Origin: Salipiger mucosus DSM 16094
GTDB lineage: Bacteria > Pseudomonadota > Alphaproteobacteria > Rhodobacterales > Rhodobacteraceae
Assembly: GCF_000442255.1 (NCBI RefSeq)
Contig: NZ_KE557280.1
Location: 1-64,000, forward strand
Length of the DNA: 64,000 nucleotides
Reading direction: 5' to 3'
The notes under the pieces were generated by a model. That model ran no database searches, was not told where the DNA came from, and saw only the letters and a list, made by a program, of their open reading frames with translations. Position numbers and translations under genes: made by a program. This document shows positions 5,950 through 16,634 of this stretch, piece by piece; positions within the stretch are counted from its first letter, which is position 1, and every line of letters begins with the position of its first letter.

Positions 5950-6156
5950 GCCGATTGCGTTGCCTCGCGGTGCGTTGACCGGGGCTCGTGACGTAAGCGG
6001 CCGCGGGGTCGGCGACCGCGGGGCGCTTCTGCGCGCCCTTGGCACGGTGAACGCGGATACCCGGAATGTGGTTCCGGCCCGCGTTCGGGGCGGGGCCCGC
6101 GCGGTCCGGCGTGCGGTTGCAGGGAACGATCCGCGCGCCCGCGGTGTTGGCTGCGC

Positions 6157-6915
6157 ATGGACCGGGACAGCCTGACAGCCAGAACCATCGCCATCGCGCG
6201 TTCCGTCGAACTGCAGATGCTCGCGATCAGCACCGGGATCATCGTCGGTGTCTGGGGCTTTGCGGAGCTTGCCGACGAGGTGATCGAGGGCGAGACGCAG
6301 GGCATCGACCGGCAGCTGCTGCTGCTGCTGCGCACGCCGGGCGACCTCGCGGACCCGCTGGGCCCGCCGGTGGCCGAGGAGATCGGCCGCGACCTGACGG
6401 CGCTTGGCGGGATCATCGCGCTGACGCTGGCCACGCTGGCGACCTGCGGCTTCTTCCTGCTGCTGCGGCGCTACGGCTCGGCCTTCTACATGGGCGCGAC
6501 GGTCGGCGGGGGCATCCTGCTGTCGAGCGTCGCGAAGGGGCTGTTCGATCGCGCGCGGCCCGATCTCGTGCCGCACGGCTCGATCGTGCACACGGCGAGC
6601 TTTCCCTCGGGCCACTCGACCATGGCGGCGATCACCTACCTGACGCTGGCGGTGCTGATCGCGCGGGTGCTGCCGCAGCGACGGCTCAAGGTCTACGTGA
6701 TGACCGTGGCTGTGCTGCTGACGGTGCTGGTCGGCGTGAGCCGCGTCTACCTTGGCGTGCACTGGCCGACGGACGTGCTGTCGGGCTGGCTGGTGGGGCT
6801 GGCCTGGGCGATGCTCTGCCTCCTCGGCGCGCGTCTGCTGGCGCGGCATGGCCGGGTCGAGCCCGATGCCGACGAGGGCGATCCGGAGACGGGCGCGCCG
6901 GGGCAGGGGCCCTGA
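6157..6915 (+). CDS. PAP2-family membrane phosphatase
   Basis: 252 residues with several hydrophobic segments and the three phosphatase motifs in order: KGLFDRARPD, PSGHSTMAA and SRVYLGVHWPTDV. This is the type 2 phosphatidic acid phosphatase/undecaprenyl-pyrophosphatase superfamily, acting on lipid phosphates at the outer face of the inner membrane. The exact substrate is not determined by the motifs. It is the first gene of a plus-strand pair with the EEP-family gene that starts 97 bases downstream, and both may act on membrane phosphoesters. Confidence 0.88.
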   Translation: MDRDSLTARTIAIARSVELQMLAISTGIIVGVWGFAELADEVIEGETQGIDRQLLLLLRTPGDLADPLGPPVAEEIGRDLTALGGIIALTLATLATCGFFLLLRRYGSAFYMGATVGGGILLSSVAKGLFDRARPDLVPHGSIVHTASFPSGHSTMAAITYLTLAVLIARVLPQRRLKVYVMTVAVLLTVLVGVSRVYLGVHWPTDVLSGWLVGLAWAMLCLLGARLLARHGRVEPDADEGDPETGAPGQGP

Positions 6916-7012
6916 GCGCCTGGCGGCGTGCCAGGGACATCCCGAAACGCCCGACCGCCCGCGCGCGCCGATGCCGCCCGGACGCAAGACAACAAGAAAC
7001 GGAACAGACACC

Positions 7013-8107
7013 ATGCGCCTGCTGATCACCATCGTTCTCGTCCTCGTCACCGGGATCCTGACCCTCGGCTCCTTCCTGCACCTGGCCGAGACCGATGTGT
7101 GGTGGGTGCGCACGACCGACTTCCCCCGCCTGCAATACGGCGCCGCGCTGCTGGTGCTGCTGGTGCTTCTGGCGCTGCTGGCACGGTGGGTCTCGCGCCC
7201 TGTGCGGGTGGTGCTGGTGGTCCTGGCGCTGGTCTCGCTGGGCTACAACGTGTTCAAGCTGGCGCCCTACATGCCGATCGGCGGGCGCGACGATGTGGCC
7301 AGCTGCGACGCGGAGGACAGCCTGACGGTGCTGGTGGCCAACGTGCAGATGGAGAACCGCGAAAGCGCGGGGCTGCTGGAGCTGGTGCAGGCGCGCGAGC
7401 CCGACCTCTTCCTCGCGCTCGAGACCGACGCGTGGTGGGACACCGAGCTCTCGCCCCTGGGCGAGGCGATGCCGCAGACCGTCTCGCACATCGACGACGA
7501 TTTCTACGGCATGCATCTCTTCTCGCGCCTGCCGCTGAGCGAGACGCGGGTGATGTTCCCGGTCGAGACCGACACGCCCTCGATCCTGGCCAAGGTCGAG
7601 CTGCCCTCGGGCAACGAGGTGCAGTTCATGGGCCTGCACCCGCGGCCGCCGCACCCGGGGCAAAGCTCGGTCGGGCGCGACGCGGCGCTGATGTGGGCGG
7701 GGCTGCGGGCCTGGAACTCGAAGGTGCCGGTCGTGGCGGCGGGGGATCTGAACGCCGTCCCCTGGGAGCGCAGCGCCATGCGGATGCAGCGCATCGGCCA
7801 GTTCCTCGACCCACGCCGCAGCGAGGGCTTCAAGGCGAGCTTCAACTCAAGTTCGTGGTGGATGATCTGGCCACTGGACCAGGTGCTGCACCAGGCCGAG
7901 CTGAGCCTCGTGTCGCTGGACATCCTGTCGAGCTTCGGCTCGGACCACTACCCGGTCGAGGCGACGCTCTGCGACCGCCCCTCGGAGCACCGGCCGCCGT
8001 CGATCGTGGACGGCGACATGGACGAAGCCGAGGAGACCATCCGCGCGGTGCTGGACATGCAGCGGGAGAGCGAGGAGCGCGACCGCCGCGAAGCCTCGGA
8101 CAGTTGA
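7013..8107 (+). CDS. Membrane-anchored endonuclease/exonuclease/phosphatase-family protein
   Basis: 364 residues. The first ~85 residues hold three hydrophobic segments, placing the remainder on the periplasmic side. The catalytic part has the EEP fold signature: VLVANVQMEN near the start, LFLALETDAWW, GLHPRP, AAGDLNAVPW and a final GSDHYPV. These are the Asn, Glu, His, Asp-Asn and Asp-His metal and catalytic positions of the family. Substrates of bacterial membrane EEP proteins vary (phospholipid head groups, nucleic acid), so none is assigned. The ATG at 7013 opens directly on the first membrane segment; longer upstream frames lack sense. The C-terminal ~40 residues are highly charged. Confidence 0.85.
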   Translation: MRLLITIVLVLVTGILTLGSFLHLAETDVWWVRTTDFPRLQYGAALLVLLVLLALLARWVSRPVRVVLVVLALVSLGYNVFKLAPYMPIGGRDDVASCDAEDSLTVLVANVQMENRESAGLLELVQAREPDLFLALETDAWWDTELSPLGEAMPQTVSHIDDDFYGMHLFSRLPLSETRVMFPVETDTPSILAKVELPSGNEVQFMGLHPRPPHPGQSSVGRDAALMWAGLRAWNSKVPVVAAGDLNAVPWERSAMRMQRIGQFLDPRRSEGFKASFNSSSWWMIWPLDQVLHQAELSLVSLDILSSFGSDHYPVEATLCDRPSEHRPPSIVDGDMDEAEETIRAVLDMQRESEERDRREASDS

Positions 8108-8233
8108 CCGCGTGCGCGCGGGCGCACGCGCGCGCGAGGCTCAGGTGCGTTGAGCCGCGTCAATGATCCGCGGGCGGAGTTGCTCCACCCTCGTTCCGGG
8201 ACGCCGGTGTCCCGCAACGAGGGGGAGATCACC

Positions 8234-8638
8234 ATGACACGTTCCGGACCACTCGCGACGCTCGCCGTCGCAATCGCCCTGGCACTGGGCGGAGCCGCGG
8301 CCCTTGCCGACAGCGCGGGCGAAGAGGAATACCGTGTCGCCTGCGCGGGCTGCCACGGCGAGAGCGCAATGGGCGACGGGCCGCTCGCGGGGCTGCTGAA
8401 CATCTCGCCCCCGAGCCTCGTGGGTCTGTCGCAGGCCAACGAGGGCAGCTTTCCCTTCGAGGCGGTGCTGAGCACCATCGACGGCCGCGACGGCGTCCGG
8501 GCACATGGCAGCCAGATGCCGGTCTGGGGCGAACGCTTCCAGGCCTCGGCGACAAGCCAGCGCGGCGAGACCGCCGACATGGTGGCGCGGGGGCGCATCC
8601 TGTCGCTGGTCTACTACCTGCAATCGATCCAGGAGTGA
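8234..8638 (+). CDS. Small periplasmic cytochrome c
   Basis: 134 residues with a signal peptide (TRSGPLATLAVAIALALGG, cleavage near Ala-Leu-Ala-Asp) and one haem c motif CAGCH (Cys37, Cys40, His41). A likely axial Met lies in GSQMPVWGERF. It resembles class I monohaem cytochromes that accept electrons in the periplasm. The ATG at 8234 follows GGGGGAGATC; an upstream in-frame start at 8150 would put about 28 non-signal residues in front and is less likely. The redox partner is not visible. The gene lies just outside the left end of the integrated element. Confidence 0.85.
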   Translation: MTRSGPLATLAVAIALALGGAAALADSAGEEEYRVACAGCHGESAMGDGPLAGLLNISPPSLVGLSQANEGSFPFEAVLSTIDGRDGVRAHGSQMPVWGERFQASATSQRGETADMVARGRILSLVYYLQSIQE

Positions 8639-8905
8639 TCCGGGCCGGGCGTGCGTGACGGCGACCCGCGGGGTGTCTTCACCTTCGGGTGAGCAGCGGG
8701 CGCCGGTTGCGGGTCTTTTCGGCGAGTCGCGGGGCAGGTGCCGGCTGTTCACGACAGGACGCGGGCCCGCCGGGTGCGGGGCTGCGGTGGCGCGCGCCGC
8801 GACTGCGTGGCAGCGACGCGGGCTGCACGCGGGGACGAAAGCCTGCACGGGCCCGCCCGTGGCGGGCTCGCGCGTTTTCCCGTGATTTTTCAGCTGCTTG
8901 GGAAA
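8639..8905. other. Non-coding flank between cytochrome gene and element
   Basis: 267 bases of host-like, very GC-rich DNA with no supported gene. Its only clear structure is the hairpin near 8851. Before insertion of the element this DNA would have followed the 3' end of the tRNA-Ser gene. Confidence 0.5.
8851..8878 (+). terminator. Hairpin with short T run
   Basis: GCCCGCC and GGCGGGC form a 7-bp stem with a 3-base loop (8851-8867), followed by CGCGCG and TTTT. It could end the cytochrome transcript. The gap before the T run makes it a weak intrinsic terminator. Confidence 0.4.
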
Positions 8906-8919
8906 TGGCGGAGAGACAG
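8906..8919. repeat. Distal attachment site (att) of the element
   Basis: TGGCGGAGAGACAG here is identical to 16344-16357, the last 14 bases of the tRNA-Ser gene read from its CCA end. Identity stops at both ends of the 14-mer. Its position at the change from host-like DNA to a phage-like gene block, with an integrase next to the tRNA, marks it as the distal direct repeat left by site-specific integration into the tRNA 3' end. Confidence 0.8.
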
Positions 8920-8988
8920 TCCGTCCGTCCGCGAACCGCATCCTGGATTATTGTGATAAAACAGTATCTTGTGAATCTACGTTGTCAG

Positions 8989-9000
8989 AAATGTGGACAA
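8989..9000 (+). promoter_or_regulatory. Candidate integrase arm site, left end
   Basis: AAATGTGGACAA is identical to 16241-16252 near the other end of the element. Here it is preceded by TTGTC (8982-8986), and at the other end it is followed by TTGTC (16265-16269). Repeated 12-mers close to both ends of an integrative element are expected for arm-type integrase or excisionase sites; this role is inferred. Confidence 0.4.
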
Positions 9001-9049
9001 GAACATCTGCGAACGCCCCTGAGCATAGCGAATCGAACCCCCAAATGGA

Positions 9050-9082
9050 AAGCCCCCCGCCGGGACCAACGGCAGGGGGCTT
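9050..9082. other. Strong hairpin inside the left end of the element
   Basis: AAGCCCCCCGCC (9050-9061) pairs with GGCAGGGGGCTT (9071-9082) in a 12-bp stem with one C-A mismatch and a 9-base loop. No T run follows. It may end transcription entering from the host or fold in the leader of the primase mRNA. Confidence 0.5.
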
Positions 9083-9142
9083 GGGCAGGATTCCCAGCAG
9101 GGGAAGAACAGGAAGCCCCCTCATCACAAAGGACCTCTCAAC

Positions 9143-9187
9143 ATGAACAACCCTCAACACAAAGGCAGATCACATGAGGAACACTAA
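9143..9187 (+). CDS. Possible 14-codon upstream ORF overlapping the primase start
   Basis: ATG 9143 follows AAAGGACC at good spacing and reads MNNPQHKGRSHEEH to TAA 9185-9187, crossing the primase ATG at 9174 in another frame. It could couple or restrain primase translation. It is too short for coding statistics; the ribosome-binding site is the only support. Confidence 0.3.
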   Translation: MNNPQHKGRSHEEH

Positions 9188-10034
9188 TAATCTTTCGGCG
9201 GAATTGCAAGGCAATCTGGACGTGGCGCTGGCGTGGGCAGAGGCCGGGATTCCGATCTTCCCGGCGCTGGCTGAAAGCAAGCGGCCCCATGTCACCGGCT
9301 GGCAGGACAAGGCCACGACCGACCCGGATCAGCTCCGCCGCTGGTGGCGCAAGTGGCCCGACGCCATGCCCGCCATTCCGACCGGCAGCCGCTCCGGCGT
9401 GGCCGTGCTGGACCTTGACCGGAAGAATGGCAAGGACGGCTTCCAGACCTTGCGCGAGCTGGGGCACGACCCGGACGCGCTGAGCCCGCATGTCATCACC
9501 ACGCCTTCTGGCGGGCAGCACCTCTATTTCCGGCACATGGAGGGCTTGAAGCAATCGGCTGGTCAGATTGGCCCCGGCGTGGACGTGCGGGCAGCGGGCA
9601 GCCTTGTCATTGCCCCGGGCGCGATCAACGGCAAGGGCAGCTATGGGCGTCTCAGCGGCCCGCTGAAGCGCGTCTTGGCTGATCTGAAGCCTTGGCCCAC
9701 GACGGTCCAGCCGCCTGCTCGTGAGCCGCGCCAGAGCTCCGGCGACGTGACCGGGCTGCCCTTTGAAGAGTTCCGGGACGCGCTCATGGCGGTGCCCAAC
9801 GACGACACCAACCCGGACGCCGATGGCCGGGACTGGTGGGTCAAGATGCTGGCGGCGGTCCACCACGAAACCGGCGGCTCCGAAGAGGGCTTGGATCTGG
9901 CGCAGGACTGGTCCGCTCAGCACGGCTCCTATGACCCGGAAGAGACCGACTCCGTCTGGCGGTCCTTCCTCCGCGACGATGGCGCGACCGGGGCCACGGT
10001 GCTGCGCGAAGCCCGCAAGCGGGGCTGGGCCTGA
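9174..10034 (+). CDS. Prim-pol type DNA primase/polymerase of the element
   Basis: 286 residues. The N-terminal ~190 are an archaeo-eukaryotic primase (prim-pol) domain: a short-chain start (ALAWAEAGIPIFPALAESKRP), a catalytic-type DLD in VAVLDLDRKNGKDG, and the TTPSGGQHLYF motif. The C-terminal ~90 residues (LPFEEFRDALMAVPNDD through WRSF) fit a PriCT-2 primase C-terminal domain. No helicase domain follows, so this is the short form. It would prime or replicate the excised element. The start is the ATG after AAAGGCAG. It is the first full gene inside the left att site and the only replication gene in the element. Confidence 0.85.
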   Translation: MRNTNNLSAELQGNLDVALAWAEAGIPIFPALAESKRPHVTGWQDKATTDPDQLRRWWRKWPDAMPAIPTGSRSGVAVLDLDRKNGKDGFQTLRELGHDPDALSPHVITTPSGGQHLYFRHMEGLKQSAGQIGPGVDVRAAGSLVIAPGAINGKGSYGRLSGPLKRVLADLKPWPTTVQPPAREPRQSSGDVTGLPFEEFRDALMAVPNDDTNPDADGRDWWVKMLAAVHHETGGSEEGLDLAQDWSAQHGSYDPEETDSVWRSFLRDDGATGATVLREARKRGWA

Positions 10035-10454
10035 GCGGGCATAGCCTCCACCGTCCCCCATTTCCTGATGGCCGCCGCAATCAAGGCGCTCTGCTTCTTG
10101 TCGAACGCCCGGCGACGGCTCCGCTGCGAGCGGATGTGCCGGTCTTGTTTCGTCTTGCGGCCCCCAGCGCCCTGAATGGCGATTCCGAGGGGATACAGCG
10201 GCGCGGTCATGGTCCGTCCTGTCTGCTGGGGGTGGTGGGGGCCGCCCACCCAAAAGGCAGCCCCCGGGAGTGAGCCTCCCCGACATGGCCGTGAGGCTAG
10301 GAGAAAACGGGGCGGCGAATCCTCTATACCCTGAGCTGGCCTCCGAGTCGATGGTCAACGGAAAGTTTACTTTCAATAACAGTTGCTTAGGTAATTAACC
10401 AGTGAGGGCGACTCAGGGTGTGCCAAGGCATCCCGCAATGAGGAGTCCTGACAG
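10035..10454. other. Intergenic control region of the element
   Basis: 420 bases without a firm gene. A minus-strand frame from ATG 10210 (after AGGACGGACC) to 9929 would give a basic 93-residue protein, but its last third is antisense to the primase and it has no recognised motif. The stretch 10340-10400 is unusually AT-rich for this window and holds the palindrome at 10361. It is the likely promoter region for the capsid operon beginning at 10455. Confidence 0.4.
10361..10374. promoter_or_regulatory. Palindromic operator candidate before the capsid operon
   Basis: GAAAGTTTACTTTC is a perfect inverted repeat with 6-base arms and a 2-base centre, in the most AT-rich part of the region and about 80 bases before the next gene. 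It could bind a dimeric regulator of the element or of a helper phage. No repressor gene is recognised nearby. Confidence 0.4.
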
Positions 10455-11084
10455 ATGGAAGATGCAGAAGAGTGGTATGGGGGCTTCACTGTCCCGAAGA
10501 AAATCCGCCGCCACACGGGCAAATATTCCGGCCTCATGACCGTTGCCGAGCTGGCGCGGGCTGTGACCCCGCCGGGCAAGGACAAGACCAAGGTTGCCGA
10601 TCAACTCCGTTGGTATCTCCGGCAAGGCTACCTCACTCCCGTTGCCCGAGAGGAAGAGGGCCGCAAAGCCTTCCTGTTCCTTCCCGACCAAGCTCTTGTG
10701 GCCGAAGTCCTGTTCCGCATGGCTGAGTTCGGTATTGCTGAGACCGAAGCCGGGCTGGCGGCGAACCAAGCTTTCAACGTCTGGCGCGAAGACGACTTGC
10801 CCGAAGGCAAGCCGCCGCACCCGACTCCCGGGCTGATGGTCATCCGCGACTATGAGGCTGGGCACCGCGATTGGTCCTTTGAGCTCTGGTGCTTCATCGA
10901 AGTGTCCACTGGCCAGAAGCGTTTCCATGCCCGTCTGGCCGCAAATCAGCGCCGCATCGGCACCAGCCTGCGGTGGGGCAAGGAAAACGGGCATGACCCC
11001 CGGGCGGTCTTCGCGGTTGATCTGGTGGACGTGCTGGACCCCATCCACCCGCGCAACCGCAAGAAGCGGGAAGGCATGAACTAA
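10455..11084 (+). CDS. Winged-helix-like protein in the small-terminase position
   Basis: 209 residues, not recognised with certainty. Residues about 25-90 look like a winged-helix DNA-binding fold: LMTVAELARAVTPP, then KVADQLRWYLRQGYLTPV, then a charged wing and KAFLFLPDQALVAEVLF. The second half (WSFELWCFIEVSTGQKRF, KENGHDPRAVFAVDLVDVL) is of unknown type. It follows GAGGAG and its TAA overlaps the portal ATG as TAATG, so it is the first gene of the capsid operon. In tailed phages that place belongs to the terminase genes. A packaging-specificity or regulatory role is possible but is inferred from position only. Confidence 0.6.
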   Translation: MEDAEEWYGGFTVPKKIRRHTGKYSGLMTVAELARAVTPPGKDKTKVADQLRWYLRQGYLTPVAREEEGRKAFLFLPDQALVAEVLFRMAEFGIAETEAGLAANQAFNVWREDDLPEGKPPHPTPGLMVIRDYEAGHRDWSFELWCFIEVSTGQKRFHARLAANQRRIGTSLRWGKENGHDPRAVFAVDLVDVLDPIHPRNRKKREGMN

Positions 11085-12463
11085 TGGCGTTCCCCTTCCT
11101 GCCCAAGCTCTTCCGCCGTGCCGCGAAGCCCACCCATGTCCGTCGTTTCGACGGGGCAGCCGGGGGACGGCGCGGCTGGGGCATGGGCACGATGGGGCGC
11201 ATTAACCCGGAAGTCTCCGCCGCTGGTGCGTCTCTTCGGAGCCGCGCCCGCTACCTAGCCGCTAACAACCCTTGGCTGGCGCAAGCCGTCGCCAACTGGG
11301 CCGGGGCTCTAGTGGGGCCGGGCATCGTGCCCGCGCCGAAGCACCCTGACGCGGACACCCGGGCGGAGCTCACCGCCCATTTCAACCTCTGGGCTGACGA
11401 AGCCGACGCCGATGGGCGGACGGACTTCTGGGGTCTGCAATCCGACATTGGCCGTGGGCTGGTCATCGACGGCGAGTCCTTCGTCCAGCTCATCACAACG
11501 GAAGCCGGGCCGAAGCTCCGGTTGATCCCGCCCGAGCTGGTGGACGAGTCCCTGACCCGTGAGCTGGCGGACGGGGCCTGCATCGTGCAGGGCGTGGAAT
11601 TTGATGCGGACGGCAACCGGGTGGCCTATCACGTCCTCCCGAGCCGCCCGCATGACCAGTTCGCCAACTATGCCCCGCCTGTCCGGGTCCCGGCGGATGA
11701 CATTCTCCATGTGATGAAGCCGCTGGCGGCGGGGCAGGTTCGGGGTGTCTCTTGGCTGGCCCCCGTGATCCTGCCCGCTTCCGAATTTGACCAGCTCTGT
11801 GACGCGCTCTTGGTGGGCGTGAAGGTCGCGGCGATGCACTCCGCCTTCCTTGTGGACATGAACGGCACGGCGGGCGAGCCCTATGACGGCACGGAGACGG
11901 GCGGCATCATGGAGACCGGCCTTGAGCCCGGCACCATGAAGCGGCTGCCCACCGGCTATGACGTGAAGTTCAACACGCCCGGGCAGACGCAAGAGATTGG
12001 CGCGTTCCTCCGCCTCAACCTGCAACAGCTTGCCGCCGGTCTGGGGCTGCCCGAGCATCTGCTTTCCGGCGATCTGACCGGGGCCAACTATTCCAGCCTT
12101 CGGGCCGGGCTGCTGCCGTTCCGGCAGCGGGTTGAACAGGTGCAGTATGGCACCCTTGTTCCCCAGCTTCTCCGCCCGATCTGGCGGCGCGTCGTCACTT
12201 TTGGCGTCCTGTCCGGTGAGCTGGCGGCCCCGGACTTCGAGTCCAATCCCCGGGCCTATCTGGCCTGCGAATGGCTGCCCCCGAAGCCCATGCAGGTGGA
12301 CCCGCTCAAGGATGTGCAAGCGACCGTGGCGGAGCTGGAAGCCGGGCTGACCAGCCGCCGCAAGGCCGTCGCCGAACGGGGCTGGGCTCTGGAAGACCTG
12401 GACTCGGAGATTGCCGCCGATCCGCACACCCCCAAGCCCAAGGAGTCCGACAATGCCGCTTGA
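11084..12463 (+). CDS. Phage portal protein (lambda-type)
   Basis: 459 residues matching the lambda-family portal protein. After a basic N-terminus come RSRARYLAANNPWLAQAVANWAGALVGPGI, then EADADGRTDFWGLQSDIGRGLVIDGESFVQ, then the crown-region stretch LNLQQLAAGLGLPEHLLSGDLTGANYSSLRAG, which is a hallmark of this family. Portals form the dodecameric ring at one capsid vertex through which DNA is pumped. The ATG overlaps the stop of the upstream gene and the 3' end overlaps the capsid gene by 11 bases. The length is normal and the frame intact, which argues against decay. The terminase that must dock on this ring is not encoded in the element. Confidence 0.9.
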   Translation: MAFPFLPKLFRRAAKPTHVRRFDGAAGGRRGWGMGTMGRINPEVSAAGASLRSRARYLAANNPWLAQAVANWAGALVGPGIVPAPKHPDADTRAELTAHFNLWADEADADGRTDFWGLQSDIGRGLVIDGESFVQLITTEAGPKLRLIPPELVDESLTRELADGACIVQGVEFDADGNRVAYHVLPSRPHDQFANYAPPVRVPADDILHVMKPLAAGQVRGVSWLAPVILPASEFDQLCDALLVGVKVAAMHSAFLVDMNGTAGEPYDGTETGGIMETGLEPGTMKRLPTGYDVKFNTPGQTQEIGAFLRLNLQQLAAGLGLPEHLLSGDLTGANYSSLRAGLLPFRQRVEQVQYGTLVPQLLRPIWRRVVTFGVLSGELAAPDFESNPRAYLACEWLPPKPMQVDPLKDVQATVAELEAGLTSRRKAVAERGWALEDLDSEIAADPHTPKPKESDNAA

Positions 12464-14207
12464 CCTCTTCACCCGCCGGGCGGCCTTCCGTCCGACGACG
12501 CTTGACCGCGAAAACCGCACCGTCCGCGTCACCGTCTCGACCGGGGCCGCCGTCCAGCGGCGCGGCTATATCGAACGGCTGACGCTGCCAGACCCGCAGA
12601 GCATCGTAGGGCTGCCCGTGCTCAACTCGCACCGGCAAGACGGGCTGGACAATCTGCTGGGCCGCGTGGTGGCGGCTGGCGTGGATGACGCGGGCCTCTG
12701 GGCAGACGTGCAAATCTCGCAGCGGGCCGAATGGCTCTTGGGCGAGATCGAAGCCGGAATCGTGACCAGCGCGAGCATCGGCTACCGCCAAGGGGCCGCG
12801 ACCCGCTCCACCGATCCCGCCACCGGGCAGCCGGTGCGCACCATCGTCCCCGAAATCTCGGAAATCTCTTTCGTCCCCGTGCCCGCCGACAAGGGTGCCA
12901 CAATCAGGAGTAACCAAGTGGAAAACGACGAAATCACGGTGGATGAAAACGCCACCGAAACCCGCGAAGATGACCGGGCGCAGACCCGTGCCGCAATCCG
13001 TCAGATTGCCCGTTCCGCTGGCATGACCAGCGAACAGGCCGACGACATGGTGGACCGTGAGCTGTCCATCAGCGAAGCCCGGGCGGAAGCCTTTGAGGCA
13101 ATGCAGGACCGTGGCCGCACCACGCCGCGCATCCGCACGGCGACCCGCGAGGCAGACAACCCCGCCACGGTCCTGCAACTCCGCTCCGACGCGCTCTATG
13201 CGCGGACCTCTGGCGAAGCCCCGTCCGACGCGGCGCGGCCCTACATGGGCGAGACGCTGCGCGACATGGCGCGGGCTTGCGTGGAGGCCACCGGCACCAG
13301 CACCCGCGCGATGGACGCTGACCAGCTCTTCCGGGCTGCGATGCACACCACGTCCGACTTCCCCCAGCTTCTCACCAGCACCGGCAACCGAACGCTGGTG
13401 GCAGCCTATCAGGCGGCTCAGAGCCCGGTGAAGACGACGCTGGCGCGGCAATCGACCTTGGCCGACTTCCGGCCCGGGACGCGGCTCAAGCTCAGCGACA
13501 TTGGCACTCTGGGCAAGGTGAGCGAGTCGGGTGAGATCAAGCACACCAGCCGGGCGGAAGCGTCCGAATCCTATGCGCTCGACACCTACGCCACGCAGTT
13601 CGCTATCAGCCGCAACGCGCTCATCAACGACGATCTGGGCGCGTTCCGCGACTGGGGCGCGACGGCGGGCCGGATGGCGGCGGAAACGGAAGCCAACCTG
13701 CTGCTGTCGCTGCTGCTGAGCAACCCGACGATGGGCGAAGACGCCACCGCGCTCTTCCATGCCGATCACGGCAACCTTGCCGCCGGGTCCGCTCTGGAAG
13801 TCGCGGCGCTGGATGCAGCCCGGAAGGCCATGCGCGGCATGAAGGCTCTGGACGGTGTGACCCCCATCAACGCCACGCCCAAATACCTGCTGGTGGGGCC
13901 GGAGCTGGAAACCACGGCGGAGCAAATCCTTGCTGCGATCTACGCCGCTACCGTGGCCGACGCCAACCCGTTCACGGGCCGTCTGACGCTGCTGGTGGAA
14001 CCGCGCATCACGGACTCGTCCTTCTACATCTTCGCGGACCCCGCCGTCCTGCCCGTGCTCGAATACAGCTACCTGAGCTCCGCTCAGGGGCCGCAGATGG
14101 CGTCCCGCGAAGGCTGGGACGTGCTGGGCATGGAGTTCCGCGTGGTGCTGGACTTCGGCTGCGGTGCCGTCGACTGGCGCGGCGCTTACCTCAACCCGGG
14201 CGAGTGA
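12453..14207 (+). CDS. Prohead protease-major capsid protein fusion
   Basis: 584 residues. The first ~150 are an S78-type prohead protease: LPVLNSHRQ carries the catalytic His and VTSASIGYRQ the Ser. An acidic, Glu-rich linker or scaffold region follows (about 155-240). The rest is an HK97-fold major capsid protein ending in FRVVLDFGCGAVDWRGAYLNPGE. Fusing protease, scaffold and capsid in one chain is known in some alphaproteobacterial phages. The start at ATG 12453 overlaps the portal gene by 11 bases and begins the clear family sequence PLDLFTRRAAF. The protein would give a self-processing procapsid. Both active-site motifs are present, so it is probably functional. Confidence 0.88.
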   Translation: MPLDLFTRRAAFRPTTLDRENRTVRVTVSTGAAVQRRGYIERLTLPDPQSIVGLPVLNSHRQDGLDNLLGRVVAAGVDDAGLWADVQISQRAEWLLGEIEAGIVTSASIGYRQGAATRSTDPATGQPVRTIVPEISEISFVPVPADKGATIRSNQVENDEITVDENATETREDDRAQTRAAIRQIARSAGMTSEQADDMVDRELSISEARAEAFEAMQDRGRTTPRIRTATREADNPATVLQLRSDALYARTSGEAPSDAARPYMGETLRDMARACVEATGTSTRAMDADQLFRAAMHTTSDFPQLLTSTGNRTLVAAYQAAQSPVKTTLARQSTLADFRPGTRLKLSDIGTLGKVSESGEIKHTSRAEASESYALDTYATQFAISRNALINDDLGAFRDWGATAGRMAAETEANLLLSLLLSNPTMGEDATALFHADHGNLAAGSALEVAALDAARKAMRGMKALDGVTPINATPKYLLVGPELETTAEQILAAIYAATVADANPFTGRLTLLVEPRITDSSFYIFADPAVLPVLEYSYLSSAQGPQMASREGWDVLGMEFRVVLDFGCGAVDWRGAYLNPGE

Positions 14208-14209
14208 GC

Positions 14210-14425
14210 ATGGCGACCGTGGCTGAGCTGACCAAGATGCGGGCGGACCTCCATGCCGCCCGCATGACCGGGGCACGGGAGTATCAGGACCAGAACGGCG
14301 AAACCGTCGTCTACAAGTCCGACTCCGAGATGGCCCGGGCGCTGGCGGCGCTCGACGCCGAGATTGCGGCGGCTCAGTCCAAGCCGCCGTCCACCATCCT
14401 CTTCAAAACGAGCAAAGGACTCTGA
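14210..14425 (+). CDS. Small head-tail joining protein (gpW-like)
   Basis: 71 residues, mostly helical and charged (ATVAELTKMRADLHAARMTG), with the pattern of small gpW-type head completion proteins that sit next to portal and capsid genes. This family plugs the portal after packaging and provides the tail attachment surface. A GTG at 14204 forming a GTGA overlap with the capsid stop is an alternative start. Its presence suggests that filled heads are meant to receive tails, although no tail gene is in the element. Confidence 0.65.
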   Translation: MATVAELTKMRADLHAARMTGAREYQDQNGETVVYKSDSEMARALAALDAEIAAAQSKPPSTILFKTSKGL

Positions 14426-14427
14426 CG

Positions 14428-14757
14428 ATGAAGAACTATGTGCAGAAGGGTGAGAACATCACCGTGACCGCGACCGCCGCCGCCAGTTCGGGCGAAGGCG
14501 TCCTTGTGGGCAGCCTCTTCGGCATCGCCGCCGGGGACGCCGCCATTGGCGAAGACCTCGACCTTGTGACGGTGGGCGTCTTCACCATGCCCAAGGTGAG
14601 CACCGACGCCTTCACCGTGGGGGCCGTCGTCTACTGGGACGACTCCGCCGGGCTGGTCACGACCGACGACGACACCGGCTCCAACCCGGAAATCGGGCTG
14701 GCCGTGACCGCCGCCGCCAACCCCAGCGGCACCGTCAACGTGCGGCTCAACGGCTGA
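14428..14757 (+). CDS. DUF2190 capsid decoration protein
   Basis: 109 residues of mostly small and beta-branched amino acids: KNYVQKGENITVTATAAASS, GEGVLVGSLFGIAAGD, then VVYWDDSAGLVTT and IGLAVTAAANPSGTVNVRLNG. This matches DUF2190, which includes capsid cement or decoration proteins of HK97-fold phages and gene transfer agents. It lies two bases after the connector-like gene in the same operon. It would stabilise the expanded head. Confidence 0.85.
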   Translation: MKNYVQKGENITVTATAAASSGEGVLVGSLFGIAAGDAAIGEDLDLVTVGVFTMPKVSTDAFTVGAVVYWDDSAGLVTTDDDTGSNPEIGLAVTAAANPSGTVNVRLNG

Positions 14758-14761
14758 GACG

Positions 14762-14971
14762 ATGAACGCCCCGGCCACCATCACCTCCGACCTGCTGCGC
14801 CTCCACAGGGCGCGGGACAAGGTTGCGCGGCTGGTGGTGGCCGATCCGGTCTATGCGCCGATCTTCCAGCGCCTTGAAGCTGAGATTGCCGAAGCTGAGG
14901 CCGCCGAAGACATCGTGGCCCGCGCCCGGGCCGTCGCTCAGAAGGCCAGAGGCGACAAGACTTCGCGCTGA
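14762..14971 (+). CDS. Small helical protein of unknown function
   Basis: 69 residues with a single helical, Glu/Ala-rich character (RLEAEIAEAEAAEDIVARARAVAQ) and a basic tail. It starts four bases after the DUF2190 gene and ends 34 bases inside the convergent integrase gene. It sits where a further head-completion or scaffolding protein would be expected. No family is recognised. Confidence 0.55.
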   Translation: MNAPATITSDLLRLHRARDKVARLVVADPVYAPIFQRLEAEIAEAEAAEDIVARARAVAQKARGDKTSR

Positions 14972-16209
14972 TATTCCAGCGTGGCACCGTCGCCATACTC
15001 TTCCCGGGTGAGGCGATGACCCATCAAATCCCGCCGCACCCGCTCATCAACCTTGGCCGCAAGCAAGCGGTCCTCAAAAGCGTGTCGCAACGAGTAGAGC
15101 GAATGACTGTCAGTTTGCAGCAACCCGTTTTCCCGCAGGAACTTGTTCACGACACCGGACAGGCTGGCAGAGCTGTCGCGGTAGCGCGGGAAGCCGGCCG
15201 GGAAGCCGCGCATGGCTTCCAAGCTCACCCCGGTCAAGGCGATCTTCCGACGCGCCCGGCGGCTCTTGAGCTGGCGGCCTACGGGCTCAATCGAGATGTG
15301 GGGCACGTTGGCCTTGAGGTGAATCGTCTCGGGCGTCAGGGCGGCAATCTCCGAGGGCCTGCATCCGGTGTTGACCATCACCAGCAAGATGGCCCGGGCC
15401 TCATCGTTCAAGCCGTCCAGAGCCCCCGGAGCCAAGAGCCTTTCCCGAATCCACGTCTCCGAGAAGGGCGGGCGCTTTTTCTTCTCGCCTTCCTTCAAGG
15501 ACAGGTCCGAGAGGGGCAAGACCAGCCCCAGCCGCTTCATGCGGTTCACCGTCTTGAGCACGTCGCCAAGGTGGATCAGGTCCTTGTTCGCGCTGTTGGG
15601 CGTCATGTCCTCTTCGGCGATGCGGTCAATCCACCAGTCCCGGAAGGCCAGCATGTCGTCTCCGGTTATCTCGGGCAGGGGCCTGTCGCCCACCACGTCC
15701 ACGAAATTCTTCACCGCCTTCTTGCGCGGATTCTGCCAGCGCCGAAGCTGGTCTTCGCTCTTGCCCAAGGTCTTGTCCTTGGCGAGCCCCCAGTAGAGTT
15801 CCAGCGCCCGCGTCACCGTGATGGGCGGCTCAGAGACGCCACCCAAGAGGGCAGCGGCTTCCACCATGTTCGGTTCGCCCTTGTGCTCTGGCACGGCTTC
15901 TATGCGGTCCAGAAGGGCCGTGGTGGGCAGCTCCGCCACCTTGGCGGCGGGCATGAACCGGAAGCCCCGGCGCTCTGCCAGCTCCCGGGCCGCCTCAAAG
16001 CGGCGTTCCGCGTCCTCTGTGTCTCCCGCCAGCCGTGCTTCCCAAGCCTCTATCAGCTCCGCCCATGCGGCTTCCGCCTTGAGCTTGGCGAGCTGAGCCG
16101 AGTCAGTGTGAAGGCTCTGGGAGATCAGCTCACGCGGCTCAATGGGCGCGAACCGCTTGGGCACCCGGCGGCGCAGATGGTAGGTGTTTCCGATCTTCTT
16201 GAGAGACAT
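14938..16209 (-). CDS. Tyrosine recombinase (integrase) of the element
   Basis: 423 residues. The N-terminus (SLKKIGNTYHLRRRVPKRF) is an arm-binding type domain, followed by a core-binding domain, and the catalytic domain shows Arg in NTGCRPSEIAAL, the second Arg in YSLRHAFEDRL (the usual His of HxxR is Tyr here), His in LMGHR and a Tyr within REEYGDG. I start at ATG 16209; the frame stays open to 16275 but that part would encode a Cys-rich, unlikely extension across the att-side DNA. It is transcribed away from the tRNA it uses as target and overlaps the last gene of the capsid operon by 34 bases tail to tail. Confidence 0.9.
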   Translation of the reverse strand: MSLKKIGNTYHLRRRVPKRFAPIEPRELISQSLHTDSAQLAKLKAEAAWAELIEAWEARLAGDTEDAERRFEAARELAERRGFRFMPAAKVAELPTTALLDRIEAVPEHKGEPNMVEAAALLGGVSEPPITVTRALELYWGLAKDKTLGKSEDQLRRWQNPRKKAVKNFVDVVGDRPLPEITGDDMLAFRDWWIDRIAEEDMTPNSANKDLIHLGDVLKTVNRMKRLGLVLPLSDLSLKEGEKKKRPPFSETWIRERLLAPGALDGLNDEARAILLVMVNTGCRPSEIAALTPETIHLKANVPHISIEPVGRQLKSRRARRKIALTGVSLEAMRGFPAGFPRYRDSSASLSGVVNKFLRENGLLQTDSHSLYSLRHAFEDRLLAAKVDERVRRDLMGHRLTREEYGDGATLEYQREVLSPLAF

Positions 16210-16240
16210 GGGCAGGCCCCAGCGGCGGACAATGTAGCAA

Positions 16241-16252
16241 AAATGTGGACAA
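16241..16252 (+). promoter_or_regulatory. Candidate integrase arm site, right end
   Basis: AAATGTGGACAA repeats the 12-mer at 8989-9000. A second GACAA lies at 16228-16232 and TTGTC at 16265-16269, giving a cluster between the integrase start and the tRNA. It also overlaps the likely integrase promoter, so integrase could repress its own gene by binding here. Confidence 0.4.
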
Positions 16253-16343
16253 AAAAGTGGACCATTGTCAACCACGGGTTTACGATGACTTCGGCTAAGC
16301 GACTGAAATCACTCGTAAACTTGCTCATTTCTGGGAGGAAAAG

Positions 16344-16357
16344 TGGCGGAGAGACAG
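16344..16357. repeat. Proximal attachment site (att) inside tRNA-Ser
   Basis: TGGCGGAGAGACAG is the last 14 bases of the tRNA-Ser gene including its CCA. The tRNA is complete on this side, so the element restored the gene on insertion. The matching copy is at 8906-8919. Confidence 0.8.
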
Positions 16358-16433
16358 GGATTCGAACCCTGGGACCCCGTGAAGGGTCAACGGTTTTCGA
16401 GACCGCCCCGTTCGACCGCTCCGGCACCTCTCC
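16344..16433 (-). tRNA. tRNA-Ser(CGA)
   Basis: A 90-nt type II tRNA on the minus strand. The acceptor arm is GGAGAGG against TCTCTCC, with G73 and an encoded CCA. The anticodon loop CTCGAAA gives CGA, which reads UCG. A long variable arm (TTGACCCTTCACGGGGTC) and the T arm CAGGGTTCGAATCCCTG are clear. It is the integration target of the element to its left. Upstream DNA at 16434-16634 is the likely tRNA promoter and the leader of the divergent DUF2059 gene. Confidence 0.95.
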
Positions 16434-16634
16434 GCGGGGGTCGTCGTGGGGGGCCGTTTAGCGTCCTGCGTCGGGCTGTGCAACCGGGAAAATGTCAGGA
16501 AATGTTCATCTGCGCATCGAGCGCCCGAGGCTGCGGCACGCGGCGCGTCGTGACTGGCGACTTCCCGCTTCCCCGGCTTGGAAAGCGGCGCCGCAGCGCC
16601 TAGGTTCCCGGCCAGCCGACAACGGAGATTCCCG

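What the first reader, a model, noticed from the sequence alone, without database searches (positions are those of the whole stretch)
8906..16357. Compact element with capsid genes but no terminase or tail: candidate capsid-forming satellite
The 7.45-kb block between tRNA-Ser copies encodes a primase, portal, protease-capsid fusion, connector-like and decoration proteins and an integrase. All frames are intact and overlap tightly, so this is not obviously a decayed prophage. Head genes without terminase, tail or lysis genes match the logic of capsid-forming phage-inducible islands, which use tails of a helper. Those islands normally keep their own terminase; this one does not, so it would also need the helper's packaging motor or a new one. 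I do not know of a described family with exactly this layout in Rhodobacteraceae.
Basis: partly seen in the sequence, partly recalled or inferred. Interest (0 to 1): 0.85.

Follow-up and report, generated by a model that had tools for sequence, protein, structure and literature searches.

The report
Truncated capsid-encoding phage satellite
This is a known kind of phage satellite, one that builds its own virus heads and probably borrows tails, in a copy that has lost the stretch holding its DNA-packaging motor and replication origin, so it is most likely crippled rather than a new motor-less design.

Summary
The gene list is largely right. The element spans 8906-16357, with 14-bp att repeats and an integrase beside tRNA-Ser. 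It carries a Prim-Pol fragment, a MerR-like regulator, portal, protease-capsid fusion, head-tail adaptor, cement protein and integrase, and no detectable terminase or tail gene.

Relatives are mostly compact head-encoding elements that keep their own terminase: TerL is intact in 50 of 55 assessable loci. The two closest, in a congener (11.7 kb) and a Lutimaribacter (12.5 kb), match the window's portal-to-integrase part at 88-90% DNA identity. They carry a full-length primase, iteron repeats, TerS and TerL where the window's primase stops mid-gene, and no recognised tail genes. A conserved cos-like motif lies upstream of TerS in this family.

So the window copy is best read as an internal deletion derivative, about 4.3-5.1 kb shorter: it lacks the VapE half of the primase, the iterons, the cos-like region, TerS and TerL. 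Its head and integrase genes show no relaxed constraint, so the loss is probably recent or the head genes still serve something. It descends from a capsid-forming-PICI-like satellite and is probably unable to replicate or package itself.

The parts
8906..8919 (+). left att core TGGCGGAGAGACAG
   Evidence: identical to 16344-16357; L105 has the same core at both ends, L049 a variant (TGGCGGAGACGAAG) at both ends, each matching its own tRNA-Ser
9174..10034 (+). truncated primase: Prim-Pol + PriCT_2, 286 aa, lacking the VapE-like part
   Evidence: Pfam PF09250, PF08707; homologue of 735 aa with PF05272 in L049; DNA homology ends at 10032
10032..10454 (.). presumed deletion junction and 420 bp of unmatched sequence
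   Evidence: no convincing match in the held loci or in viral contigs other than the same element; no Pfam match for the minus-strand reading
10455..11084 (+). 209-aa MerR-like DNA-binding protein, probable regulator
   Evidence: no Pfam/PHROG match; AlphaFold2 mean pLDDT 84.9; best PDB match the MerR-type regulator CvkR, E 8.9e-4; a divergent relative precedes the portal in other loci
11084..12463 (+). portal protein, lambda family
   Evidence: PF05136 E 4e-84; phrog_21
12411..14207 (+). prohead protease (S78)-major capsid fusion
   Evidence: phrog_4523 E 3.3e-157; PF25209, PF10124, PF04586
14204..14425 (+). head-tail adaptor, Ad1 type
   Evidence: phrog_2545 E 1.9e-10
14428..14757 (+). capsid cement/decoration protein
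   Evidence: PF09956 E 4.3e-28; phrog_122
14762..14971 (+). 69-aa conserved ORF, function unknown
   Evidence: kept in L049 and L105
14938..16275 (-). tyrosine integrase
   Evidence: PF00589, PF20172 (DUF6538), phrog_1
16344..16357 (+). right att core, 3' end of the tRNA-Ser
16344..16433 (-). tRNA-Ser (CGA), integration target
   Evidence: ARAGORN; tRNA-Ser and right flank matched in 20 of 20 genomes of the genus

Best explanation
The block is an internally deleted copy of a cfPICI-like satellite: an integrative element that makes its own phage head, packages its DNA with its own cos-type terminase and, having no tail genes, presumably takes tails from a helper phage. The intact relatives have the order att - PrimPol-VapE primase - iterons and cos-like region - TerS - TerL - small accessory genes - MerR-like regulator - portal - protease-capsid - adaptor - cement - small ORF - integrase - att. 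In the window copy a deletion runs from inside the primase gene through the VapE part, iterons, cos-like region, TerS and TerL into the accessory region. Shown: gene content, att repeats, primase truncation, absence of terminase, iterons and cos-like core in the window, presence of the block in relatives. Inferred: that one event caused the loss, that the iterons are the origin and the motif the cos site, that tails come from a helper, and that this copy can no longer replicate or package itself although its integrase and head genes look intact.
For: L049 (congener) matches 8991-10032 (82.9%) and 11078-16370 (88.5%); between these L049 holds 5.3 kb, the window 1.0 kb. L105 (Lutimaribacter) matches 11063-16439 (89.7%) and 8900-9210 (76%). 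Att-to-att lengths: 7,438 in the window, 11,736 in L049, 12,506 in L105. L049's extra block encodes VapE (PF05272), TerS (phrog_57) and GpA TerL (PF05876, PF20454); L105 has a primase-homologous ORF of 846 aa and TerL 93% identical to L049's. TerL covers >=480 residues in 50 of 55 assessable loci; 3 partial, 2 none (window, L061). A primase-homologous ORF of 657-937 aa is found in 34 of 68 other loci, many of the rest being cut by contig ends. Iteron TGTGGACCGT: 7 exact copies in L049, 6 in L105, 0 in the window element. Cos-like core GGGTCCTTCC upstream of TerS: 26 of 43 loci within one mismatch, 21 exact, against 1.04 and 0.01 in shuffles; no exact copy in the 64-kb window. L024, a 12.3-kb virome-type contig, has the integrase end joined to the primase end across an att-like core without a tRNA, and an exact cos-like core about 100 bp from its end: an intact relative in an excised, rearranged form.
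Against: No intact allele at this tRNA in S. mucosus was seen, and the 420-bp filler matches nothing, so the right breakpoint cannot be aligned. No empty site was found: the left flank matched none of 17 fetched congener regions. Head and integrase genes on the window branch show no relaxed constraint (0.115 against 0.167 and 0.198), as expected for a recent loss but also for a copy still in use. L049 itself lacks the cos-like core within one mismatch. Some of the 50 TerL-bearing loci may be tailed prophages; in L052 the terminase lies downstream of the capsid gene.
Confidence: 0.88

Rival explanations
1. A functional terminase-less capsid-forming satellite that is packaged by a helper's motor.
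For: Head and integrase genes are intact and constrained. A resident prophage-like region on contig C4 has a GpA-type TerL, TerS, head and tail genes and the same cos-like core 155 bp before its TerS.
Against: The window element has no exact cos-like core; its single one-mismatch hit lies inside the primase coding sequence. It lacks the iterons and the VapE part of the primase. The primase stops mid-gene. L061 and the three partial-TerL loci (L062, L109, L119) are broken in different ways, so no shared terminase-less lineage was seen. The prophage TerL is 29% identical to the satellite TerL of L049.
Confidence: 0.05
2. Remnant of a full tailed prophage that lost terminase, tail and lysis genes.
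For: Phages with related capsid fusions exist; best matches 33-34% identity.
Against: The closest homologues, L049 and L105, pass from cement gene to integrase and att site without tail genes.
Confidence: 0.04
3. Assembly artefact: the ori/terminase block was lost or collapsed in assembly.
For: The published genome is a draft, 84 contigs in 30 scaffolds (PMC4148975, passages).
Against: The window contains no N. IMG/VR record L021 shows the same layout, though probably from the same assembly. The only GpA terminase found in the genome is the prophage's.
Confidence: 0.03

Closest known systems
L049 (congener G006) and L105 (Lutimaribacter sp. EGI FJ00013): full-length relatives
   Same: Same att logic and gene order from portal to integrase; 88-90% DNA identity there.
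   Different: They keep a full-length primase, iterons, TerS and TerL; 11.7 and 12.5 kb against 7.4 kb. Their gene before the portal differs.
Capsid-forming PICIs (cfPICI), e.g. EcCIEDL933
   Same: Own capsid genes, integrase, primase, no tails (definition from passages of PMC11389934, and recall).
   Different: Known cfPICIs carry their own terminase (signature genes listed in a passage of PMC10448857); this copy does not. No AlpA was recognised here.
Putative E. coli capsid-encoding satellites without terminase genes (PMC10448857)
   Same: Capsid and decoration genes, integrase beside tRNA, no terminase (passage).
   Different: They carry tape-measure and baseplate genes and RepA_N, and lack the prohead protease and adaptors; no homology was tested.

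Membership tests
cfPICI | own capsid module (portal, protease, major capsid, adaptor) | tested here: met
cfPICI | own terminase (TerS/TerL) | tested here: not met
   absent from the window; present in the close relatives L049 and L105
cfPICI | complete primase-replication protein (Pri-Rep type) | tested here: not met
   286 of about 735 aa; VapE part absent
cfPICI | integrase and att sites | tested here: met
cfPICI | AlpA-type regulator | tested here: inconclusive
   no AlpA match among nine scanned ORFs; a MerR-like protein may take that role
cfPICI | no tail or lysis genes | tested here: met
   no tail or lysis match among the element's ORFs
cfPICI | induction and transfer with tails of a helper phage | not testable with these tools
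   needs experiment
defective full prophage | closest homologues carry tail genes between the same att sites | tested here: not met
   L049 and L105

The most novel reading that the evidence does not exclude
The surviving head module is still useful. Its portal, capsid, cement and adaptor proteins form heads without element DNA that compete for the tails or terminase of incoming phages or satellites, so a deleted satellite persists as a decoy-type defence; or the 7.4-kb element still moves using a helper's motor and an unrecognised packaging site, perhaps in the unmatched 420 bp. Low nonsynonymous change on its branch excludes neither.
Probability: 0.07. Interest if true: 0.65.

Novelty: new member of a known kind. 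Interest (0 to 1): 0.22.

Why it matters
It corrects a reading that would otherwise suggest a new packaging strategy. As a by-product it outlines a head-encoding satellite family common in Rhodobacteraceae, with a compact block of iterons, cos-like site and terminase, and a cos-like core shared with a resident prophage, which makes helper matching in this group testable.

Tried and rejected
Empty-site test: tRNA-Ser and right flank are matched in 20 of 20 genomes of the genus, own included, but the left flank matched none of the 17 congener regions fetched (17 of 19 congeners); pieces of it match scattered places in congeners. The att sites therefore rest on the repeats in three elements.

Is the 209-aa ORF a hidden terminase subunit? 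No family match; the fold is MerR-like. Rejected. Is the 420-bp filler a known accessory gene? No convincing match. Further relatives of the 209-aa protein in viral contigs: only the same element. Phage records similar in DNA to the element: only two matches, both at the tRNA.

A tblastn count of the primase C-terminal half was set aside: only 15 of 55 loci match the single-sequence queries, so it cannot tell loss from divergence; ORF lengths were used instead. A first constraint run with the integrase in a wrong frame is replaced. The literature search for GGGTCCTTCC gave 34 papers; the 8 listed titles have no phage subject.

Papers: PMC11389934, PMC10448857, PMC8224337 and PMC4148975 were seen as passages; PMC12324425 (Charybdis elements, which lack virus hallmark genes and so differ) as abstract and section list; others only as search listings; PMC10085698 is not held. 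The original cfPICI papers were not read; what I say of them is recalled or second-hand. The listings (the best 20, 7, 20, 20 and 12 shown) showed no paper on capsid-encoding satellites of Rhodobacteraceae; this covers only the held library and the rows shown.
Full report
Anatomy. The window belongs to a genome of 5,689,389 bases in 30 contigs, the size and scaffold number published for Salipiger mucosus DSM 16094 (PMC4148975, passages). The element runs from 8906 to 16357. Its ends are a 14-bp repeat, TGGCGGAGAGACAG; the right copy is the 3' end of a complete tRNA-Ser(CGA). Eight ORFs were kept: Prim-Pol/PriCT_2 (286 aa), a 209-aa protein, portal, S78 protease-capsid fusion, Ad1-type adaptor, cement protein, a 69-aa ORF and, on the other strand, a tyrosine integrase. 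No terminase or tail gene was found.

Relatives. The capsid fusion matched 41 of 195 relatives' genomes, the own genome included, 28 IMG/VR loci (one, L021, is this element) and 5 loci of other species' genomes. The portal matched 142 of 394 genomes of the family; many of those are weaker matches and may be ordinary prophages. I fetched larger stretches for 20 places and 18 more, one of them the window's own, and called genes by length and codon-position GC. The recurring order is primase - TerS - TerL - variable small genes - regulator-like ORF - portal - protease-capsid - adaptor - cement - integrase. A primase-homologous ORF of 657-937 aa is present in 34 of 68 other loci. I located the capsid gene in 69 loci, window included. 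In 14 the sequence upstream was too short. Of the other 55, 50 have TerL over at least 480 residues, 3 have part of it (L062, L109, L119) and 2 have none (window, L061). L061 has a short portal and its downstream side is masked. TerS was found in 43 of 50 loci by one query. I did not check all 50 for tails, so some may be prophages; in L052 the terminase is downstream of the capsid gene.

The deletion. L049, in a congener, matches the window over 8991-10032 at 82.9% and 11078-16370 at 88.5%; between these stretches L049 holds 5.3 kb and the window 1.0 kb. L105, in Lutimaribacter, matches 11063-16439 at 89.7% and 8900-9210 at 76%. Both have the same kind of att repeats, each matching its own tRNA-Ser: att-to-att lengths 11,736 and 12,506 against 7,438 in the window. 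L049's extra block encodes the VapE-like part of the primase (PF05272), TerS (phrog_57) and a GpA-type TerL (PF05876, PF20454). In L105 the primase-homologous ORF has 846 aa and TerL is 93% identical to L049's. The window's homology ends at 10032, the first base of the fragment's stop codon, well inside the relative's gene. The next 420 bp match nothing convincingly. The 209-aa ORF after them belongs to a fast-diverging set of proteins placed just before the portal; its model (mean pLDDT 84.9) is closest to the MerR-type regulator CvkR. It is not a terminase.

Cis sites. In L049 and L105 the primase-TerS interval holds direct and inverted copies of TGTGGACCGT (7 and 6 exact); the window element has none. 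Several other loci, not all, have repeats of their own there. Upstream of TerS the core GGGTCCTTCC occurs within one mismatch in 26 of 43 loci (shuffled mean 1.04, maximum 4) and exactly in 21 (shuffled mean 0.01); both strands of all these loci together hold 26 exact copies. Its position suggests a cos site; that is inference, and L049 itself lacks the core within one mismatch. The 64-kb window has no exact copy; the one-mismatch hit in the element lies in the primase coding sequence.

An excised relative. L024 is a 12.3-kb IMG/VR contig, without a tRNA gene, whose order is TerL ... integrase - primase. The integrase and primase ends are joined across TGGCGGACAGAGAGGGATTCG, which resembles a tRNA 3' end. 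Its last 102 bases begin with an exact cos-like core and its start lies in the TerS region. It has no exact terminal repeat. I read this as an intact relative in excised, circular or packaged form, opened near the cos-like site. The first bases of the contig look like an amplification primer (recalled), so its end may be technical.

Is the window copy still working? On three-way alignments with L105 and L049, changes specific to the window in portal, capsid, adaptor, cement, 69-aa ORF and integrase are 102 synonymous and 34 nonsynonymous (normalised ratio 0.115); the other two branches give 0.167 and 0.198 (Fisher p 0.036, window lower). The adaptor alone (4 S, 7 N) has too few changes to judge. 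There is no sign of decay. This fits a recent deletion and does not exclude remaining function. For self-transfer the copy would need a foreign helicase, origin, packaging site and motor. The genome search found one GpA terminase, in a prophage-like region of contig C4 with tail genes, whose cos-like core lies 155 bp before its TerS; its TerL is 29% identical to L049's. No second capsid-fusion element was found in the genome. I judge the copy crippled for replication and packaging (about 0.8), possibly still able to excise.

Place among known systems. By descent and by its head-plus-integrase logic it belongs with capsid-forming PICIs, but two features tested here are not met (terminase, complete primase) and no AlpA was recognised, so I do not file this copy as a working cfPICI. 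Capsid-encoding putative satellites without terminase have been described in E. coli (PMC10448857, passage), so even the layout has a precedent of a kind. I rate it a deletion variant of a known kind, of low to moderate interest. The relatives, more than the window copy, merit further work.

Noticed in passing
L024 (IMG/VR contig, 12,347 bp): An intact relative with the integrase end joined to the primase end across an att-like core, and an exact cos-like core about 100 bp from the contig end: probably an excised, circular or packaged satellite.
   Followed up: partly
43 loci, within about 16-181 bp upstream of TerS; L071:9416: Core GGGTCCTTCC, often followed by a CGCGGAGCCCC-like box, upstream of TerS in satellites and in the resident S. 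mucosus prophage: a probable shared cos core.
   Followed up: partly
window 10455-11084; L049:8225-8857; L105:8034-8621: The MerR-like gene before the portal differs strongly between elements whose neighbouring genes are about 90% identical, as if exchanged as an allele; perhaps a specificity or immunity determinant.
   Followed up: partly
L062 and L119: Other elements with a truncated TerL next to the portal: further deletions around this block.
   Followed up: no
G000:C4:308804 and following (L073, L074): A Terminase_6-type gene followed by head and tail-like ORFs in an order that recalls the RcGTA gene transfer agent cluster (resemblance recalled).
   Followed up: no
window 7733-7820, minus: ARAGORN reports a tRNA-Cys lying antisense inside the long ORF 6752-8107; possibly a false call.
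   Followed up: no
window 6100-8900: The DNA left of the element is not next to this tRNA-Ser in the 17 congener regions fetched, so the left side of the site has been rearranged or replaced.
   Followed up: partly
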